This document shows positions 4,429 to 12,021 of a DNA stretch of 64,000 nt, piece by piece; position 1 is the first letter of the stretch, and every line of letters begins with the position of its first letter. Under the pieces are notes generated by a model. That model ran no database searches and was not told where the DNA came from. It saw nothing but the letters and a program-made list of their open reading frames with translations. The stretch comes from Halohasta salina. GTDB lineage: Archaea > Halobacteriota > Halobacteria > Halobacteriales > Haloferacaceae. The DNA lies in NCBI RefSeq assembly GCF_024178165.1, contig NZ_JAMZIE010000001.1:310001-374000 (forward strand). Direction: 5' to 3'. The position numbers and the translations under genes were made by a program.

Positions 4429-4445
4429 GCTATCGACTGTCTTTC

Positions 4446-4460
4446 GGTTTTTCCACTTTT
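4446..4460. terminator. T-rich tract between convergent atpB and cyclophilin genes
   Basis: The 30-bp gap between the two stop codons is T-rich on the + strand (runs of five and four T separated by CCAC). Archaeal termination commonly uses such oligo-T tracts. No strong hairpin precedes it. It would end the atp transcript before the inserted block, which is why atpD probably depends on its own promoter. Confidence 0.5.
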
Positions 4461-5076
4461 ATTCGTCGACCGCTACCGATTCGAGAGTTACTGGGTCGAC
4501 CGGTCGATCGTTCCCATCGGTCTCGACGCCGCCGATTTCACGAACGACAGCCATCCCCTCGGTGACCCGTCCGAACACCGAATGGACGTCGTCGAGATGT
4601 GGGGTTGCAGTCAGCGTGATAAAGAACTGCGAGCCGTTGGTGTCGGGCCCTGCGTTCGCCATCGAGAGGACGCCCGCACCGTCGTGGCGTAACTCCTCGT
4701 GGAACTCGTCGTCGAACTGGTAGCCCGGCCCGCCGCGGCCGGTCCCGGTTCGGTCGCCGGTCTGGATCATGAAGTCCTCGATCACGCGGTGGAACGGGAC
4801 ATCCCGATAGAAGGGTTCGCCGTCGACCGTCTCGCCGGTTTCGGGGTCGACCCACTCTTTATCGCCCGTCGCGAGGCCGACGAAGTTCTCGACCGTTCGG
4901 GGTGCGCGGTCGCCGTAGAGTTCGACTACCACCTCACCCCGACTCGTGTTCAGTGTGGCCGTCCGCGGGCCGGAGTCGGTGGTCTGGGTGGTCGAACTGT
5001 CGCCCAGACAGCCAGCAAGCGCTCCACCCACGCCCGCGGCTGTCAGCGTCAGCACCCGTCGTCGGCTGTGAGTCAT
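4459..5076 (-). CDS. Lipoprotein cyclophilin-type peptidyl-prolyl isomerase
   Basis: Cyclophilin (205 aa) catalysing cis-trans isomerisation of proline peptide bonds. The N-terminus has a twin-arginine motif (residues 5-7 RRR) followed by a hydrophobic stretch and the lipobox LAGC with Cys23. It is therefore probably exported by Tat and lipid-anchored outside the cell, as is common for haloarchaeal secreted proteins. The cyclophilin domain spans about residues 38-205, with the conserved segments VENFVGLA, FHRVIEDFMIQTGD and GSQFFITL. It is convergent with atpB and lies 48 bp downstream of the GT2 gene on the same strand. Confidence 0.93.
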   Translation of the reverse strand: MTHSRRRVLTLTAAGVGGALAGCLGDSSTTQTTDSGPRTATLNTSRGEVVVELYGDRAPRTVENFVGLATGDKEWVDPETGETVDGEPFYRDVPFHRVIEDFMIQTGDRTGTGRGGPGYQFDDEFHEELRHDGAGVLSMANAGPDTNGSQFFITLTATPHLDDVHSVFGRVTEGMAVVREIGGVETDGNDRPVDPVTLESVAVDE

Positions 5077-5124
5077 CGGTTCCCTCCTTCGGTAGCAACA
5101 GCATAACGATACTGATCGGCGTCG

Positions 5125-6033
5125 TTAGCCGTCGACTACCACGTCGAATCGGCCGCGCCAGTGGTAGCGTCGACCGCCCCAGACAAAGCTCCGAGATAAC
5201 CCATAGAGCAACAGCGGGAACTGAGCGATGAGCGCCGGATACGTCAACAGGACGGTCCACCGCCGAACACCGAAGTAGATATACAGTCCCGCCATCAGCA
5301 GCGTCGACGCCACTGCCGCCGGCAGCGGAAACAGGAGACAGCAGGCGACATACAGCGTCGACAGCGGGACAGTCACGTTCGGATACGGCGAGAAGTACCG
5401 GACGATCTGCATGAACCGGCTGTTACGTTCGAGGCTTTCACGAACTGTGCCGCCGATCTCGACCCGCCGGACGCGCTTGACTGGCGTCACGTCAAGATAC
5501 GCCCCCAACAGCCCGTCGTCGCTGACCGTCCGCCGGAGGTCGTGTAGAAACGCTGCCTCGTCGAGATCGTCCCGCTCGAAGATCACCGCCCCGCCCCACG
5601 GTTTGTTTACGAGCGTCAGTCCCGCGGTCGCCCCCATCACGTACATCGGTTCCATGAGCGTCGACAGCGGGTCGCGGCCGACGAAATACGGCACCTCCGT
5701 CGTCGGTCCCTGCCGTTCGTAGTCGCGCTGTAGGTCGGTAAGCCACGCCGGTGGGTGGTGAAAGTCGTCGTCGGTCCAGACCAGCCGGTCGTGGCGCGCG
5801 GCCTCCATCGCCGTGGCGATGGCGTTGGCCTTCCCCGAACAGTCCTCCGGCTCGCCGGCAACGAGGAATCGTACGCCGTCGGGCAACGAGTCGCCCGCGC
5901 CCGCGACCGGATCGCGTTCACTGTCACAGACGACCAGCAGTTCGTCGTCAGGGCTCAACTGGTCGGCGACTTCGTCGACCACGTCAGTTTCCCTAACGGT
6001 CGGTAGAATGACGCTCGTCGGCGGTCTGTCCAT
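5125..6033 (-). CDS. Membrane-bound family 2 glycosyltransferase
   Basis: GT-A fold glycosyltransferase (302 aa). The N-terminal catalytic domain begins SVILPTVRE. It has an acidic metal-binding motif in VWTDDDFHHP at about residue 90 and a second acidic segment in VSDDGLLGAY. The last about 90 residues hold three hydrophobic segments (about 212-285) ending in a basic tail, as in GT2 enzymes that transfer sugars to lipid carriers, such as the ceramide-glucosyltransferase/HpnI-like groups. Donor and acceptor cannot be read from the sequence. It is divergent from the TIM-barrel gene across 124 bp, so the two may share control. I infer a role in making a lipid-linked unit for the neighbouring polymer genes. 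Confidence 0.85.
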   Translation of the reverse strand: MDRPPTSVILPTVRETDVVDEVADQLSPDDELLVVCDSERDPVAGAGDSLPDGVRFLVAGEPEDCSGKANAIATAMEAARHDRLVWTDDDFHHPPAWLTDLQRDYERQGPTTEVPYFVGRDPLSTLMEPMYVMGATAGLTLVNKPWGGAVIFERDDLDEAAFLHDLRRTVSDDGLLGAYLDVTPVKRVRRVEIGGTVRESLERNSRFMQIVRYFSPYPNVTVPLSTLYVACCLLFPLPAAVASTLLMAGLYIYFGVRRWTVLLTYPALIAQFPLLLYGLSRSFVWGGRRYHWRGRFDVVVDG

Positions 6034-6157
6034 ACTGAATGTACGCCGACAGTGGGTGTAAGGCCGTCGACAGTGACAGCGACCGGACTCGTCAGGCGCG
6101 TCGACACTCGGGCAGAAAGGCAGAGTCGCTTTGTAAGTGGCGTTATAACGAAGCTAT

Positions 6158-6949
6158 ATGACCAACGCGCGAATCGGGTTCGTCACCCAGACTCACACCG
6201 GAGCGGTCACGCCGCTGGAGTCGATCCAGTGGGCTGCCGAGTTGGGGTACGATTTCATCGAACTCTACATGGACGGTGCCTCCGAACGAACCGGCCTCGA
6301 TCGGGAGGCGATCACCGCCGCCCTCGCCGAGACCGAGATCGATTGTCTGGTGCATCTCCCGTTCGTCGACCTCGATCTCGGGACGCCTCGCGACAAGGTC
6401 CGCGAGGGTTCGATCAGGGAGCTGCGGGCCTGTCTGGACGCGGCTGCGGATCTCGGTGCCGAGAAGGCCGTCGTCCACGCCAGCACCCATGCCACCGCTC
6501 CCGAGTGGAGCCAGCGGCGGACCAAACCCCGCATCCTCGCCTCGGTCCGGGAGCTCGAAGCCTACGCGACCGCCAACGGGATCGAGCTCTGTGTCGAGAA
6601 CCTCCCCGACGACGTGTTCACCATCCGGAGTATCGAGGAGATCCTCGCCGAGACCGACGCCTCGCTGACCGTCGACACCGGCCACGCACGCGTCTCGGGC
6701 TGTTCGGCAGCCGACACCGCTGCGTTCCTCGACGACCACCGCGAGCGGGTGTCCCACGTCCACGTCAACGACGCACGGGAGGCCCGCGACGAACACGTCC
6801 CGGTTGGCTCCGGGACGACCGACTTCGAGACGATTCTCGAACCGCTTGTCGACGGCTGGAACGGGACCGTCTCCGTTGAGGCCTACACCTTCGACAAGGA
6901 CTACATGCGCTTGAGTAAGGAGAAACTCGACGCGTGTCTTTCGGCCTGA
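6158..6949 (+). CDS. Sugar phosphate isomerase/epimerase-like TIM-barrel protein
   Basis: 263-aa member of the xylose-isomerase-like/AP-endonuclease-2 TIM-barrel superfamily. Likely metal ligands and catalytic residues sit in CVENLPDD, LTVDTGHAR, HVHVNDA and SVEAYTF. The family includes sugar and sugar-acid isomerases, epimerases and dehydratases as well as endonuclease IV. The short size and sugar-related neighbours favour a sugar or alditol isomerase, but the substrate is unknown. A TATA-like TTGTAAG at about 6131-6137 suggests a near-leaderless transcript. Its end overlaps the next gene by 16 bp, so the two are co-transcribed. Confidence 0.8.
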   Translation: MTNARIGFVTQTHTGAVTPLESIQWAAELGYDFIELYMDGASERTGLDREAITAALAETEIDCLVHLPFVDLDLGTPRDKVREGSIRELRACLDAAADLGAEKAVVHASTHATAPEWSQRRTKPRILASVRELEAYATANGIELCVENLPDDVFTIRSIEEILAETDASLTVDTGHARVSGCSAADTAAFLDDHRERVSHVHVNDAREARDEHVPVGSGTTDFETILEPLVDGWNGTVSVEAYTFDKDYMRLSKEKLDACLSA

Positions 6950-8262
6950 GGCGGGTCGTAACGCGGCTTCGGCGTCGGTGCTTCGATCGGTGGTGGCCTT
7001 CCCGGAGGTGGCGGTCGTCACTCGACCTGTTGTGGCAGTGGCTCGTCTATCTGGTCGTCGACCGGTTTTCGGGGCTCTGGAGCCGCAACGATCGACTCTG
7101 GGTGTTCGGCGCGCGTGGCGGATCGGGGTTCGTCGACAACGCCAAATACCTGTATCTGTGGGTGGCCGCCAACGAGCCCTCGGTCCGGCCGGTCTGGCTC
7201 AGCACGGACGACGACGTCGTCGATGCCCTCCAGCAGCAGGGGTACGAGGCCTACCACGCCCATTCGATCCGTGGCCGCCTCCTCACCCTCCGGGCCGGGG
7301 TCGTGTTCGTCACCCAAGGGCTCCGAGACCTCCACATGGGGAGTACTGCGGGAGCCACACTCGTCCAACTCTGGCACGGCCTCCCGTTGAAAACGATCGC
7401 GTGGGACGCCGAATGGCCAGACCAGCCGTGGCCCGTGCGGCGGTGTCACGCGTATATGGCCGACGAGATCGACCTCGTCACCGCGCCGTCGACCGCCGCC
7501 ATCGAGCCGCTGGCCTCCGGGTTGGGTGTCGCTCCCGACCGGTTCGTCGTGACCGGCTACCCGCGAGCGGACGCCTTCGCCGAGGAAATCGACGGCGCGA
7601 GGCTGACCGTCGACGAGTCACTCCTCGACCGCATCGAGTCACAAGCTGCCGACGGCGCGGTCGTCTTCTACCTGCCGACCTACCGCGAAGACGGCAAGTC
7701 GTTCGTCGATGCCTTCGATACCGCTGCTGTCGGCGAGCTACTTGAGGAACGCGGGGCCCACCTCTACATCAAGGCCCACCCTGACGAGCCGGTGACTGCC
7801 GTCGCCGACCATCCGCGAGTCCACTGGCTACCAGCCTCGGTCGACCCGTATCTCGTCCTCCCCCATGCGGACGTGTTAGTCACCGACTACTCGTCGGTAT
7901 TCTTCGACTTCCTCGCCGCCGACCGGCCGATCGTCTTCTTCGCGTACGACCGATCGGCCTACACCGCCGCTCGTGGCTTCTACTTCGACTACGAGTCGGT
8001 GACACCCGGCCCGATCGCGACCGACGTCGACGAACTCGGGACGGCGCTCGCTGAGGCACTCGAGGCGACAGCCGGTGGAACCGACCCGTATGCGACTGCA
8101 CGCCGACGGCTCCGCGAGCGGTTCTGTCCGGTTCCGCCCGGAGCGGCGTCGAAGCGGGTCTCCGAGGCGGTTTCGCGGCTGGTTTCCGGCGATCCCGAGA
8201 GCCGACGCCACCGTTCTAACTGTTCTTCGGACAGGTCGACCGCGGAACTAATCGAATTTTGA
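6934..8262 (+). CDS. TagB/TagF-like CDP-glycerol:glycerophosphotransferase
   Basis: 442-aa glycerophosphotransferase of the teichoic-acid type, transferring polyol-phosphate units from a CDP-polyol to a membrane acceptor. Recognisable motifs in order are QLWHGLPLKTI (with the family's HG), TGYPRADAF, FYLPTYRED, IKAHPDEPV and LVTDYSSVFFDF. The N-terminal 40 residues are strongly basic with an amphipathic/hydrophobic stretch, consistent with peripheral membrane binding. The start is GTG at 6934, inside the upstream gene. In bacteria these enzymes need CDP-glycerol or CDP-ribitol, and the cytidylyltransferase-HAD fusion 1.3 kb downstream could supply such a donor. Polymerase versus primase activity cannot be told apart here. 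Confidence 0.88.
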   Translation: MSFGLRRVVTRLRRRCFDRWWPSRRWRSSLDLLWQWLVYLVVDRFSGLWSRNDRLWVFGARGGSGFVDNAKYLYLWVAANEPSVRPVWLSTDDDVVDALQQQGYEAYHAHSIRGRLLTLRAGVVFVTQGLRDLHMGSTAGATLVQLWHGLPLKTIAWDAEWPDQPWPVRRCHAYMADEIDLVTAPSTAAIEPLASGLGVAPDRFVVTGYPRADAFAEEIDGARLTVDESLLDRIESQAADGAVVFYLPTYREDGKSFVDAFDTAAVGELLEERGAHLYIKAHPDEPVTAVADHPRVHWLPASVDPYLVLPHADVLVTDYSSVFFDFLAADRPIVFFAYDRSAYTAARGFYFDYESVTPGPIATDVDELGTALAEALEATAGGTDPYATARRRLRERFCPVPPGAASKRVSEAVSRLVSGDPESRRHRSNCSSDRSTAELIEF

Positions 8263-8280
8263 AACGTTCTGATAGAGAAA

Positions 8281-8288
8281 TTTAAGTA
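8281..8288 (+). promoter_or_regulatory. TATA-like box for the GDPD gene
   Basis: TTTAAGTA, centred 26 nt before the GTG at 8311 and preceded by an A-rich BRE-like stretch. The spacing fits a leaderless transcript starting at the GTG, which supports this GTG as the true start and a transcription unit separate from the TagF-like gene. Confidence 0.6.
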
Positions 8289-8310
8289 TTCGTCACCTAA
8301 CCCCCTCCTA

Positions 8311-9210
8311 GTGAGATCCGGGAACCCGCAGGGGACGCTGACGACCGCGGTCGACGGGCAGTCGACGGTCGAACTGAACGGGATCGCACACCGTGGTTTC
8401 GCCGGGCTGTATCCGGAAAATACGGTGGCTGCGGTCGAAGCCGCAGTGGCAGACGACCGGGCGACGAGCGTCGAGATCGACGTGATGCCGACCGCCGACG
8501 GAGAGATCGTCGTCTGTCACGACGACGACCTCTCCCGACTGACCGACGCGCCACCATCGGTTGCGGAGACCGACCTCTGGGAGTTGCCCTACGACCGGAT
8601 CGCGGGCTACAACGTGCTCGGCACGACGCAGTCGATCCCACGGTTGGACGACGTGTTAGCAGTGATCCCCCGAGAGATGACTGTCAATATCGAACTGAAA
8701 AATCCGGGGAGCACGGAGCTTCGGTTCGCCGAAACGCTCGACGGACCGGCCCTCGATGCGGCCGTCGACCGCTGGCGGCCGTTCGTCGGTCAGGTTCTCG
8801 ATATCGCGACTGACGGTGGTCACGACCTGCTGGTCTCGTCGTTCTACGAGGGTGCGCTCGCGGCGACCCGAGAGCTCGCCCCGTCGGTCCCGATCGCGTC
8901 GGTGTTCCACGCTTCGGTCGACACCGGCCTCGAACTGAGCCGTCGGTACGACGTCGAGGCGATCCACCCGCCGTGGAACATGGTGGCCGACGTCGAACTC
9001 CCGGACGACGGCCCGGTGCCGGGCTCGTTCGGTGACATCGACCTCGTCGAAGTGGCCCACGACGAGGGGCGAAACGTCAACGCGTGGACGGTGACGACGT
9101 GGCAGCAGGCCGCCGCACTCGCTGCGGTGGGCGTCGACGGGATCATCGCCGACTACCCCGGCGTCTGTGTCCCCCTCCAGCGGCCCGGCCTCGAATCCGT
9201 GACCCGGTGA
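8311..9210 (+). CDS. Glycerophosphodiester phosphodiesterase
   Basis: GDPD-family TIM-barrel enzyme (299 aa) that hydrolyses glycerophosphodiesters to glycerol phosphate plus an alcohol. Family signatures are present: AHRGFAGLYPENT (catalytic His), EIDVMPTADGEIVVCHDDD (metal ligands and second catalytic His), VNIELKN, and the C-terminal NAWTVTTW. No signal peptide or TM segment is visible, so it is probably cytoplasmic. The GTG start is supported by the TATA-like box 26 nt upstream. Next to a glycerophosphotransferase it may recycle or trim a poly(glycerol-phosphate)-like product. General lipid-head-group turnover is the alternative. Confidence 0.92.
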   Translation: MRSGNPQGTLTTAVDGQSTVELNGIAHRGFAGLYPENTVAAVEAAVADDRATSVEIDVMPTADGEIVVCHDDDLSRLTDAPPSVAETDLWELPYDRIAGYNVLGTTQSIPRLDDVLAVIPREMTVNIELKNPGSTELRFAETLDGPALDAAVDRWRPFVGQVLDIATDGGHDLLVSSFYEGALAATRELAPSVPIASVFHASVDTGLELSRRYDVEAIHPPWNMVADVELPDDGPVPGSFGDIDLVEVAHDEGRNVNAWTVTTWQQAAALAAVGVDGIIADYPGVCVPLQRPGLESVTR

Positions 9211-9263
9211 TCGACGCTCCGACGGCTACTCCGTGACCCAGTGATCGACGTTCCGACGGCTAC
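9196..9263 (+). repeat. Two tandem 34-bp repeats at the 3' end of the GDPD gene
   Basis: Copy 1 (9196-9229) covers the last codons and stop of the GDPD gene. Copy 2 (9230-9263) follows directly and differs at two positions. This looks like a recent tandem duplication, so the extra copy of the 3' coding end is now non-coding. Confidence 0.85.
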
Positions 9264-9519
9264 TGACCCTCGCCCGCGCGCGATGACTGCCTCCAGTGGG
9301 CTGATAGATCGACGACGGCCGTTCCTGACTCTGCTGAGTTCTCGGTCGGGATACAGTACGTAAACAGGTGCTGCCTTTCGTACGTGGTATATATAGCATC
9401 GAATCGAGTACGGAGTCCCGGCCGACGTTGTATAGTAGCCACCGCCTACTTATCCGGTCTGCTGTGAGCCTGCCCCCCGTACTTTTGAAGCGGACCCTGA
9501 TCCTCCCGGTGGCGAACGC
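9264..9519. other. Non-coding gap with an orphan TATA box
   Basis: Between the GDPD and cytidylyltransferase genes I see no credible coding region. A strong TATA-like sequence, TATATATAG, lies at about 9388-9396, but no start codon of a convincing gene sits 25-30 nt downstream on either strand. It could drive a long leader for the 9520 gene or a small non-coding RNA. A weaker T-rich element (ACTTTTGAA, about 9481-9489) lies 30-40 nt before the ATG at 9520. Confidence 0.4.
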
Positions 9520-11073
9520 ATGGATGCAGTTATCCTCGCGGCCGGAACCGGCTCCCGGCTCCGGCCACTGACAATCGATCAGCCGAAAGCGTGTGTGACC
9601 GTCGACGCGGTCCCGATCGCCGAACACCAGCTCAGAGCCTACGACGCGGCGGGATTCGAGACCGTCCACGTAGTGACTGGCCACATGGCCGATCGGATCG
9701 AAGCGCTCTGCGAGCGCCTCTCGGTAGCGCTCTCCGTCGACATCGAACTGATCCACAACGAGGTCTTCGCCAACACGGACAACATGTACTCGTTGTACTG
9801 TGCCCGCGAGGCCGTCGCCGGCGAGCCGTTCGTCCTCAGCAACGGCGACGTGGTCTTCGAACCCGCGGTCGTCGATCGGCTGGCCGCCGTCGACGACCAC
9901 AGCGCCATCGCGGTCGACACCGACCAGTACGACCCCGAGGCGATGAAGATCACCGTCGACGAGGCGGGCGCTATCACTGGGATCTCCAAACAGTTCGAAA
10001 ACGAGGTCGCCGCCGGGACGTCCATCGATTGCTACCGGTTTTCCGCGGCCACCTCGGCGAAGCTGTTCGATCGGATCGAGCGGCGGATCGAAGTCGACGG
10101 CGAGTACACCGCGTGGACCGAACTCGCCATCGACGACCTCGTATCGAGCGGTTCCCACGATGTCCGACCGGTCGATATCGAGGGCGCCGACTGGGTCGAG
10201 ATCGACGAGCGGGCCGATCTGCTGGCGGCCGACCGGACCTTCTCGTCGCTCGGCGACCTCCGCTCGATGGCGGCGGTGTTCTTCGATCTCGACGGAACGA
10301 TCTATCTGGACGAGACGCCCATCGACGGCGCTGCCGAGGTGGTCGACCGACTGCGTGCCGCGGGCGTCGACGTCTACTTCCTCTCGAACAATTCCTCGCG
10401 GTGGAAACCGACCTACGCCGACAGACTCGCCTCGATGGGGATCGACGCCGATCCCGACGACATCGTACTGTCGACCGACGGCGTGATCGACTACCTCCGA
10501 ACGAACGGAATCGAGGCGAGCTACGTCGTCGGCACCGAGGCGATGCGCGAGGCGGTTGCGGCCGCCGGAATCGAGCCGACGGCGGACGCTCCCGAAACCG
10601 TCGTCGTCGGCTTCGACACCGAACTCACCTACGAGAAACTCGCGGCGGCCACCCTCGCGATCCGCGAGGGCGCGGAGTTCCTCGTCGCCCACGGCGACAG
10701 GGTGTGTCCGACCGAAGCCGGGTTGGTCCCCGACTGCGGGTCGATCGCCGCGCTGGTCGAGACCGCGACCGACCGTGAGCCGAGCCACGTCTTCGGCAAG
10801 CCGTCGGCCGGGATGGTCGAGCACATCCTACAGCGGGAGGGGTACGCCACGTCGGAGGTCGCCATCGTCGGCGACCGGCTGTCGACGGATATCGAACTCG
10901 CCGAACGGCTGGGCTGTGAATCGGTGTCGGTGCTGTCGGGTGAGACCACCCGGCGGGCCGTCGAGACTGCCGCCCAACGCCCCTCGCTCGTCGTCGAATC
11001 GGTCGGTGAACTCTTCGCCGAGTCCGCCGAACCAGCCGAAACGATGTCGACAGCGGAGTCGACCGACCTGTAA
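9520..11073 (+). CDS. Fusion: LicC-like nucleotidyltransferase + HAD-IIA phosphatase
   Basis: A 517-aa two-domain protein. Residues 1 to about 240 are a sugar/polyol-phosphate nucleotidyltransferase with the pyrophosphorylase loop LAAGTGSRLRPLT, the segment NTDNMYSLYCARE, SNGDVVF, and a WVEIDERADLLAA ending. The NMYSLY and WVEID features resemble the LicC/choline-phosphate cytidylyltransferase group, so CTP and a small phosphorylated alcohol are the likely substrates. Residues about 250-500 are a NagD-like HAD-IIA phosphatase: FFDLDGTIYLDE with Asp256 as expected nucleophile, LSNNSSR, FGKPS, and GDRLSTDIELAE. The reading frame runs through without a break, so the fusion is real in this sequence. 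It probably makes a CDP-polyol for the TagF-like enzyme. The exact alcohol is unknown. Confidence 0.85.
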   Translation: MDAVILAAGTGSRLRPLTIDQPKACVTVDAVPIAEHQLRAYDAAGFETVHVVTGHMADRIEALCERLSVALSVDIELIHNEVFANTDNMYSLYCAREAVAGEPFVLSNGDVVFEPAVVDRLAAVDDHSAIAVDTDQYDPEAMKITVDEAGAITGISKQFENEVAAGTSIDCYRFSAATSAKLFDRIERRIEVDGEYTAWTELAIDDLVSSGSHDVRPVDIEGADWVEIDERADLLAADRTFSSLGDLRSMAAVFFDLDGTIYLDETPIDGAAEVVDRLRAAGVDVYFLSNNSSRWKPTYADRLASMGIDADPDDIVLSTDGVIDYLRTNGIEASYVVGTEAMREAVAAAGIEPTADAPETVVVGFDTELTYEKLAAATLAIREGAEFLVAHGDRVCPTEAGLVPDCGSIAALVETATDREPSHVFGKPSAGMVEHILQREGYATSEVAIVGDRLSTDIELAERLGCESVSVLSGETTRRAVETAAQRPSLVVESVGELFAESAEPAETMSTAESTDL

Positions 11074-11112
11074 TGTGCGGCCAGTGGCCGGGGTCAGTCG
11101 ACCGGCTGGGGG

Positions 11113-11124
11113 TGACTAGTCAGG
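11113..11124 (+). promoter_or_regulatory. Bat-type upstream activator element of the bop promoter
   Basis: TGACTAGTCAGG, with a perfect 10-bp palindrome TGACTAGTCA. The known Halobacterium bop upstream element has consensus ACCcnactagTTnGG and lies about 39-52 nt before the transcription start. Here the element is centred about 46 nt before the bop ATG at 11165. A TATA-like CTATTTGC (11131-11138) sits at the right place between them. The match and spacing are seen in the sequence; regulation by a Bat protein is inference. Confidence 0.7.
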
Positions 11125-11164
11125 TGGATGCTATTTGCAGTCGCCTGCCGTAATTTCCTGTGCT

Positions 11165-11911
11165 ATGGCAGCCCCAGGCACAATGCCAGGCAGTGAGTCG
11201 ATATGGCTGTGGATCGGTACCATCGGCATGGCGCTCGGCATGCTCGCGTTCATTGCGCGAGGGTGGAACGTCACCGATGAGGAACAAAAGCGCTTCTACG
11301 TGCTGACGATCTTCATCCCTGCGACCGCTGCAGTCGCCTACTTCTCGATGGCGACAGGGTTCGGACTCACCGAAATCACAGTCAACGGACAGGTGTTGGA
11401 CATCTATTGGGCGCGGTACGCCGACTGGCTGATCACGACGCCACTGCTGTTGATCGACCTCGCGCTGCTGGCACAGGCGAGTCGGAACACGATCTACACG
11501 CTCGTCGGCCTCGACGTGCTGATGATCCTCACTGGACTGGTCGGTGCGCTGGCGGCGACGCCCGCCGTCCGCATCGTCTGGTGGGGCATCAGCACCGCCT
11601 TGCTGTTGTTCCTGCTGTACTTCCTCGTCGAGTCGCTCAACGAGGCCGCCAGCAGGCAGACCGAGTCGGTGCGGAACTTGACGACGACGCTCCGCAACAT
11701 GTTGATCGTGCTGTGGCTGGCCTATCCGGTCGTCTGGATCCTCGGCACCGAGGGGACGATCGCTCTTATCCCGCTGTACGTCGAGACGGCGGCGTTCATG
11801 GTGCTGGATCTGACTGCGAAGGTCGGCTTCGGCTACGTGCTTCTGCGGAGCCACAGCGTCCTCGATCAGGTCGGAAGCGTCGACTCCGCGCCGAGTGCTG
11901 CCGTCGACTGA
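11165..11911 (+). CDS. bop: Bacteriorhodopsin (light-driven proton pump)
   Basis: Seven-helix retinal protein, 248 aa from the chosen ATG. Helix C reads [19 protein letters not shown]: Asp87 corresponds to the proton acceptor D85 and Asp98 to the donor D96 of Halobacterium bacteriorhodopsin. Helix G reads [13 protein letters not shown], with Asp215 (D212) and the retinal-binding Lys219 (K216). The release-group glutamates appear in GTEG and YVET. All proton-pump residues are therefore present, arguing against a chloride pump or sensory rhodopsin. A TTG start at 11135 would add ten residues, but promoter spacing favours ATG 11165. It lies directly upstream of atpD. No brp/blh or carotenoid gene is visible in the window. 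Confidence 0.96.
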
Positions 11912-12021
11912 TCGCTCCGGTCGACCGGCCGCTTTTGTAAGTCGTCGCGTTCGAGACGGTCGCCACTGCGACGGAAACTGAAAACCATTAACCCCTTTGC
12001 CAAATAAGGCCCACCCAAGCG

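What the first reader, a model, noticed from the sequence alone, without database searches (positions are those of the whole stretch)
5125..11073. Teichoic-acid-like polymer gene set inserted in the ATP synthase locus
Seen: GT2 glycosyltransferase, sugar isomerase-like TIM barrel, TagB/TagF-like glycerophosphotransferase, GDPD, and a cytidylyltransferase-HAD fusion lie side by side between atpB and atpD. Known: TagF enzymes use CDP-glycerol or CDP-ribitol, made by LicC/TagD-type cytidylyltransferases, and GDPDs cut glycerophosphodiesters. Inference: together they could make, donate and recycle a poly(alditol phosphate) or single alditol-phosphate decoration on the cell surface. This is a pathway I do not know to be described in archaea. 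Archaeal lipids use sn-glycerol-1-phosphate, so the stereochemistry of any CDP-glycerol would be of special interest.
Basis: partly seen in the sequence, partly recalled or inferred. Interest (0 to 1): 0.72.

Follow-up and report, generated by a model that had tools for sequence, protein, structure and literature searches.

The report
Archaeal teichoic-acid-like decoration gene cassette
A set of four genes that travels together through salt-loving archaea appears to activate a small sugar-alcohol phosphate (probably glycerol phosphate) and attach it to something at the cell membrane, a kind of reaction known from bacterial teichoic acids but for which we found no description in these archaea.

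Summary
Between atpB and atpD lie a GT2, an AP_endonuc_2 TIM barrel, a PF04464 (TagF/TarF-type) transferase, a GDPD and a LicC-type nucleotidyltransferase (NTase) fused to a HAD-IIA phosphatase. A cyclophilin and a bacteriorhodopsin gene sit there too.

The ATP-synthase location is a Halohasta peculiarity. The real unit is TIM-TagF-GDPD-fusion (6158-11073), conserved in other haloarchaeal families at unrelated places. The fusion occurs in 26 of 391 Halobacteria genomes. All 26 also have a strong TagF homologue, 23 of them within 10 kb. The linked TagFs fall in one clade (100/99). TIM orthologues (55% identity or more) occur only at fusion loci (19 of 19). A second TagF class pairs with a stand-alone LicC-type NTase, so the NTase-TagF coupling is seen twice. 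Catalytic residues are invariant. The own genome has no recognisable TagD.

Best reading: a CDP-polyol (most likely CDP-glycerol) pathway that adds a phosphopolyol to a membrane acceptor. Not shown: substrate, stereochemistry, acceptor, surface location. A polymer is not supported: TagF's N-terminal domain is absent, the cassette lies outside polysaccharide loci, and TagA and LCP are missing. The GT2 is not part of the unit. New variant of a known kind.

The parts
6158..6949 (+). AP_endonuc_2 (xylose-isomerase-like) TIM barrel, 263 aa; accessory member of the cassette
   Evidence: PF01261 E 6e-35; CbiR model 93 bits, cutoff 105; orthologues of 55% identity or more in 19 genomes, all at fusion loci; invariant His/Glu/Asp residues in alignment A4
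6934..8262 (+). TarF/TagF-type phosphopolyol transferase (single catalytic domain, N-terminal helix 3-44), 442 aa
   Evidence: PF04464 E 4e-61; TarF model E 7e-29; Foldseek best hit TagF 3l7j E 2e-24; H148 and H282 (= SeTagF H444, H584) invariant; GTG start overlaps the end of the TIM gene, overlap kept in three Halohasta genomes
8311..9210 (+). GDPD-family phosphodiesterase, 299 aa; no signal peptide apparent by eye, so probably cytoplasmic
   Evidence: PF03009 E 6e-34; the only GDPD of the genome; linked to the fusion in 22 of 23 TagF-anchored loci
9520..11073 (+). Fusion: LicC-type nucleotidyltransferase (residues 1-~243) and HAD-IIA phosphatase (~250-500), 517 aa
   Evidence: alignment A1 of 23 orthologues with NTase signature, D110, D229 and HAD D256/D258/S292/K427/D452 kept; AlphaFold pLDDT 91; NTase profile to LicC E 3e-21; HAD fold to HAD-IIA phosphatases including Rv1692
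9386..9402 (+). TATA-like AT-rich stretch in the 309-bp gap before the fusion gene; possible separate promoter (by eye only)
   Evidence: sequence read; not tested
5125..6033 (-). GT2 glycosyltransferase, divergent neighbour, NOT part of the conserved unit
   Evidence: PF13506/PF00535; seen only at the Halohasta loci

Best explanation
Genes 6158-11073 are a self-contained cassette. Inferred steps: (1) the NTase domain of the fusion activates a small polyol phosphate, most likely a glycerol phosphate, with CTP to give a CDP-polyol. (2) The TarF-like transferase, held at the inner membrane face by its N-terminal helix, transfers the phosphopolyol from that donor to a lipid or lipid-linked glycan, probably one or a few units. 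(3) The GDPD cleaves glycerophosphodiesters, supplying glycerol phosphate or recycling surplus product. (4) The fused HAD-IIA phosphatase removes surplus or wrong-isomer polyol phosphate next to the NTase. The TIM barrel is a metal-dependent accessory enzyme present in most but not all carriers. Shown here: gene content, conservation, linkage, clade-specific partnership, intact catalytic residues, folds. Inferred: CTP use, glycerol as substrate, the acceptor, the roles of GDPD, HAD and TIM, and any surface exposure.
For: Linkage of TagF, GDPD and fusion (with TIM in 16 of 23 loci) at unrelated chromosomal sites. Fusion in 26 of 391 genomes, all 26 with a strong TagF (hypergeometric 1e-25 by genome, 9e-7 by genus, not corrected for phylogeny). 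Fusion-linked TagFs fall in one clade of 26 with one exception lacking the fusion. TIM orthologues confined to fusion loci. GDPD-fusion-TIM stay together where TagF has separated, in two Halorussus genomes. The second TagF class is paired with an adjacent LicC-type NTase, mostly with under 110 bases between or overlapping. No TagD among the three CTP_transf_like proteins of the genome. Nearest solved NTases are the cytidylyltransferases LicC and PntC. TarF and TagF (glycerol) score better than TarL (ribitol).
Against: No biochemical datum. Cytidylyltransferases of this family accept varied substrates (phosphocholine, inositol-1-P, phosphoglutamine, phosphoglycerate; PMC12275187), so glycerol is not proven. 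No exporter or glycan gene is linked, so surface exposure is unsupported. Why a phosphatase is fused to the NTase is a guess. Seven of 26 fusion genomes lack the TIM gene and one (G265) lacks a linked GDPD. In G106 the TagF is of another clade and lies about 28 kb from the fusion.
Confidence: 0.6

Rival explanations
1. Same cassette, but the activated group is not glycerol phosphate: a pentitol phosphate (ribitol), a phosphoglycerate as in Caulobacter CpgD, or another small phosphate.
For: Cytidylyltransferases of this family use many substrates (PMC12275187). The TIM barrel is of a sugar-isomerase/epimerase superfamily. An rpiA-like (ribose-5-phosphate isomerase) gene lies next to the TIM gene in at least two loci of genus g5 (L048, L057). 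TarL (CDP-ribitol) is a near fold.
Against: GDPD is linked in 22 of 23 loci and GDPDs act on glycerophosphodiesters (established knowledge). TarF and TagF score above TarL. The HAD-IIA fold group includes glycerol-phosphate phosphatases. The rpiA neighbour is seen in one genus only.
Confidence: 0.25
2. A true poly(alditol phosphate), a teichoic-acid-like polymer on the cell surface.
For: PF04464 contains polymerases; TagF is the best fold match; a GDPD could trim such a polymer, as GlpQ does in Bacillus (PMC7086022).
Against: Only the catalytic domain is present (442 aa), close in size to TarF/TarB rather than to TagF (729 aa) or TarL (583 aa). No polysaccharide or export genes at type-A loci. 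No TagA/WecG and no LCP family member in the genome. The GDPD shows no signal peptide by eye.
Confidence: 0.15
3. The pathway makes a soluble glycerophosphodiester (compatible-solute-like), with HAD and GDPD as last step and breakdown.
For: CDP-glycerol-based glycerophosphoinositol is reported for Archaea (title cited in PMC8262930). No transporter or glycan genes in the cassette. HAD and GDPD fit solute turnover.
Against: Solute pathways are recalled to use CDP-alcohol phosphatidyltransferase enzymes, not PF04464 (from memory, not tested). The transferase has a hydrophobic N-terminal helix in every type-A member.
Confidence: 0.1
4. The neighbours are an accidental cluster in the ATP-synthase locus with no joint function.
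For: At the Halohasta locus they sit with unrelated genes (cyclophilin, GT2, bacteriorhodopsin).
Against: The same four genes are adjacent at unrelated sites in other families, and co-occur even when unlinked.
Confidence: 0.02

Closest known systems
Bacterial wall teichoic acid enzymes TagD/TagB/TagF and TarF (CDP-glycerol route)
   Same: PF04464 transferase with both catalytic His residues; donor-making NTase genetically coupled to the transferase (also in the haloarchaeal type-B pairs)
   Different: NTase is of the LicC type, not TagD; it is fused to a HAD-IIA phosphatase; linked GDPD and TIM barrel; single-domain transferase; no TagA and no LCP in the genome
TagF-like capsule polymerases of Gram-negative bacteria (Cps3D, Bcs3)
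   Same: Homologous TagF-like domain
   Different: Those are over 1100 aa multidomain polymerases in capsule loci; here a single-domain enzyme outside polysaccharide loci
Cytidylyltransferases LicC, IPCT, PntC and CpgD
   Same: LicC and PntC are the nearest solved NTases; IPCT also matches; CpgD makes CDP-glycerate for a lipid headgroup (PMC12275187), a comparable logic. CpgD's sequence was not compared here
   Different: No HAD fusion reported in what we read; transferase and acceptor differ
Pneumococcal CDP-2-glycerol route (Gtp1/Gtp2/Gtp3, from memory; not held in the library)
   Same: Recalled as a cytidylyltransferase working with a separate phosphate-handling enzyme before a PF04464 transferase
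   Different: Not compared by sequence here; a lead only
Haloarchaeal type-B loci found here (stand-alone LicC-type NTase + TagF)
   Same: NTase and TagF adjacent, same strand
   Different: No HAD fusion, GDPD or TIM barrel; several lie among polysaccharide genes (e.g. L050)

Membership tests
PF04464 TagF/TarF-type glycerophosphotransferases | Score over the curated Pfam cutoff and TagF GT-B fold | tested here: met
   207 bits against 22.1; Foldseek 3l7j E 2e-24
PF04464 TagF/TarF-type glycerophosphotransferases | Catalytic His pair (SeTagF H444, H584; PMC5974469) | tested here: met
   H148 and H282 invariant in 18 orthologues
TarF equivalog (NCBIfam NF041712) | Score over the curated equivalog cutoff of 550 | tested here: not met
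   101 bits: same superfamily, not the TarF orthologue
TagF polymerase | Additional N-terminal domain before the catalytic domain | tested here: not met
   442 aa; alignment starts at TagF residue ~352
Wall teichoic acid pathway | TagA/WecG-type glycosyltransferase for the linkage unit | tested here: not met
   No PF03808 match in the own genome; controls ring
Wall teichoic acid pathway | LCP ligase | tested here: not met
   No PF03816 match in the own genome; controls ring
Wall teichoic acid pathway | TagD-type glycerol-3-P cytidylyltransferase | tested here: not met
   Three PF01467 proteins: NMN adenylyltransferase, RfaE-domain-like, pantetheine-phosphate adenylyltransferase
LicC-type cytidylyltransferases | Sequence profile match and nucleotide-binding/metal residues | tested here: met
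   LicC E 3e-21; G9, G11, R13, K23, D110, D229 invariant
LicC-type cytidylyltransferases | Uses CTP on a small phosphate | not testable with these tools
   Needs enzyme assay
HAD-IIA phosphatases | TIGR01460 score over cutoff; DxD, Ser, Lys and Asp motifs | tested here: met
   144 bits against 100.15; D256, D258, S292, K427, D452 invariant
GDPD | PF03009 over cutoff | tested here: met
   119 bits against 23.6
CbiR (cobamide remodelling) | Score over the equivalog cutoff of 105 | tested here: not met
   93 bits; AP endonuclease 2 superfamily only (PMC7733943)

The most novel reading that the evidence does not exclude
Haloarchaea carry a mobile, self-contained phosphoglycerol-decoration system in which one bifunctional NTase-phosphatase makes CDP-glycerol, possibly from the archaeal sn-glycerol-1-phosphate or the achiral 2-phosphate, and a TarF-like enzyme adds it to a membrane lipid or glycan: a teichoic-acid-like surface chemistry in archaea.
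Probability: 0.3. Interest if true: 0.8.

Novelty: new variant of a known kind. Interest (0 to 1): 0.6.

Why it matters
If true, archaea use a teichoic-acid type donor-and-transfer chemistry on their own membrane lipids or glycans. It would give a direct test of which glycerol-phosphate enantiomer an archaeal CDP-glycerol enzyme uses, a question tied to the 'lipid divide' between archaea and bacteria. It also adds a negatively charged group that could matter for salt tolerance, S-layer anchoring or virus attachment (speculation). The NTase-HAD fusion is an architecture we found no report of in the papers we could search (open-access library only, so absence is weak evidence).

Tried and rejected
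(a) SDR dehydrogenases near 10 of 23 cassettes looked like a missing reductase, but they share only about 25-30% identity between genera and are not one orthologue. (b) GT2, cyclophilin and bacteriorhodopsin as cassette members: seen at Halohasta loci only. (c) sucCD, an OBG-like GTPase gene and rpiA as partners: clade-specific neighbours. (d) Anti-phage defence: one weak PADLOC hit for the TIM barrel. (e) TIM barrel as CbiR: below cutoff. (f) The fusion in non-Halobacteria MAGs G439/G416/G407 as a guide to function: there the NTase signature reads LAANDNxQLRP in the two read in full (G439, G416), so that domain is probably inactive, and the nearby genes do not include TagF, GDPD or TIM. (g) The hydropathy script anchored several N-termini wrongly; the N-terminal helix claim rests instead. 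(h) Papers on the pneumococcal CDP-2-glycerol route and the archaeal glycerophosphoinositol enzymes were not held. (i) The sigma-70 promoter scan is not suited to archaea.
Full report
WHAT IS THERE. The window is G000:C11:310001-374000 of a 3.04-Mb haloarchaeal genome. The closest named relative is Halohasta litorea, whose locus is 85% identical in the fusion protein. From atpB to atpD the order is atpB(+), cyclophilin(-), GT2(-), TIM barrel(+), TagF-type transferase(+), GDPD(+), NTase-HAD fusion(+), bacteriorhodopsin(+), atpD(+).

THE REAL UNIT. Starting from PF04464 hits in 391 Halobacteria genomes, I fetched about 20 kb around the strong ones and searched them with the window proteins. In 23 loci (the window among them) the TagF gene lies beside the NTase-HAD fusion. 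In 22 of the 23 a GDPD is there too, and in 16 the TIM barrel. The surroundings differ: ATP synthase genes in Halohasta, rpiA in genus g5 (Haloprofundus), sucCD and an OBG-like GTPase in Halorussus. So the cassette, not the location, is what is conserved. The GT2 is not part of it.

REVERSE TEST. Searching with the fusion instead (alignment A1) finds it in 26 of 391 genomes, 10 of 86 genera. All 26 are among the 55 genomes with a strong TagF (hypergeometric 1e-25 by genome, 9e-7 by genus; phylogeny not corrected). In three genomes fusion and TagF are unlinked (L121-L123); in two of these (Halorussus) GDPD-fusion-TIM still sit together while TagF stands alone. TIM orthologues at 55% identity or more occur in 19 genomes, all fusion carriers and all at the fusion locus; the next best matches, at 50% or less, are other copies. 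Fusion-linked TagFs fall in one clade with support 100/99; its only member from a genome without the fusion is G225. Named carriers include Halohasta, Halegenticoccus, Halorussus, Haloprofundus, Halomarina and Haladaptatus, and no bacterium was found with the patterns used. Distances among the four families correlate (Spearman 0.39 to 0.89), which agrees with joint inheritance but is also expected from shared phylogeny.

A SECOND PAIRING. Most other haloarchaeal TagFs form separate clades. Eighteen of the 25 rows of the stand-alone LicC-type NTase family lie directly next to TagF on the same strand, mostly with under 110 bases between or a small overlap. These type-B pairs lack HAD, GDPD and TIM within the fetched stretch, and at least some lie among polysaccharide genes. 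That an NTase accompanies TagF in both types is the best evidence that the NTase makes the TagF donor.

PARTS AND RESIDUES. Fusion: AlphaFold pLDDT 91, two domains. NTase: G9, G11, R13, K23, D110 and D229 invariant; profile matches to LicC (3e-21), PntC (1e-15) and others including IPCT. HAD: D256, D258, S292, K427, D452 invariant; fold hits are HAD-IIA phosphatases, among them glycerol-phosphate phosphatase Rv1692. Transferase: pLDDT 88, N-terminal helix 3-44, hydrophobic or amphipathic in the type-A members aligned; the catalytic His pair is kept (residues named in PMC5974469). It scores better against TarF and TagF (glycerol) than TarL (ribitol), which favours but does not prove CDP-glycerol. 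The TIM and TagF reading frames overlap in all three Halohasta genomes, suggesting co-translation. A 309-bp gap with a TATA-like stretch precedes the fusion gene, so it may have its own promoter (inference).

HOW IT MOST LIKELY WORKS. NTase: polyol phosphate + CTP to CDP-polyol. TarF-like enzyme: CDP-polyol + membrane acceptor to phosphopolyol-acceptor. GDPD: cleaves glycerophosphodiesters to glycerol phosphate, as feed or clean-up. HAD: removes surplus or wrong phosphate. TIM: unknown accessory. I put joint function at about 0.93, CDP-polyol donor-and-transfer at about 0.75, and glycerol specifically at about 0.5. The stated best explanation, taken as a whole, is at 0.6.

POLYMER OR NOT. The enzyme has only the catalytic domain, as in TarF/TarB. 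The genome has no TagA/WecG and no LCP match and no TagD among its CTP_transf_like proteins. There is no export or glycan gene in the cassette. A single or short addition fits better than a polymer. Surface exposure is not shown; the acceptor may be a membrane lipid.

WHAT IS KNOWN. CDP-glycerol chemistry in archaea has a precedent in glycerophosphoinositol (title cited in PMC8262930). Bacterial WTA uses sn-3 units and GlpQ is stereospecific (PMC7086022). CpgD shows a cytidylyltransferase supplying CDP-glycerate for a lipid headgroup (PMC12275187). I found no paper on this cassette or fusion in the open-access library; that is weak evidence of absence.

LIMITS. Everything is comparative. Sampling is one genome per species. 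Gene starts were called by a simple script. The statistics ignore phylogeny. Small-molecule specificity cannot be read from these sequences.

Noticed in passing
window 11135-11911 (+): A bacteriorhodopsin-type gene (PF01036, E 9e-67) lies directly before atpD, inside the ATP synthase locus, in all three good Halohasta genomes; the helix-C motif (RYADW...LLLIDLALL, both Asp) and the retinal-lysine region look like a proton pump. A light-driven pump encoded in the ATP synthase locus is suggestive.
   Followed up: partly
window 4429-12021: The atpB-atpD spacing varies among haloarchaea: atpD follows atpB closely in some genomes and is not found within 1.5 kb in others, so this junction seems prone to insertions.
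   Followed up: partly
L153 8961-10481, L154 6048-7550, L155: Non-Halobacteria MAGs (family f16) carry an NTase-HAD fusion; in the two read in full (G439, G416) the NTase signature is degenerate (LAANDNxQLRP), suggesting an inactive or repurposed NTase domain; two of the three genomes also have TagF genes elsewhere.
   Followed up: partly
L074, L097: Some haloarchaeal genomes (G064, G308) have three PF04464 genes within a 20-kb stretch, a different, untouched TagF-rich type of locus.
   Followed up: no
window 9207-9270: Imperfect tandem copies of about 32 bases (gatcgacg.tccgacggctact...) directly after the GDPD stop.
   Followed up: no
L078 fusion protein, about residues 205-255: The fusion of G255 contains a direct repeat of part of its linker region next to an ambiguous base, possibly an assembly artefact.
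   Followed up: no
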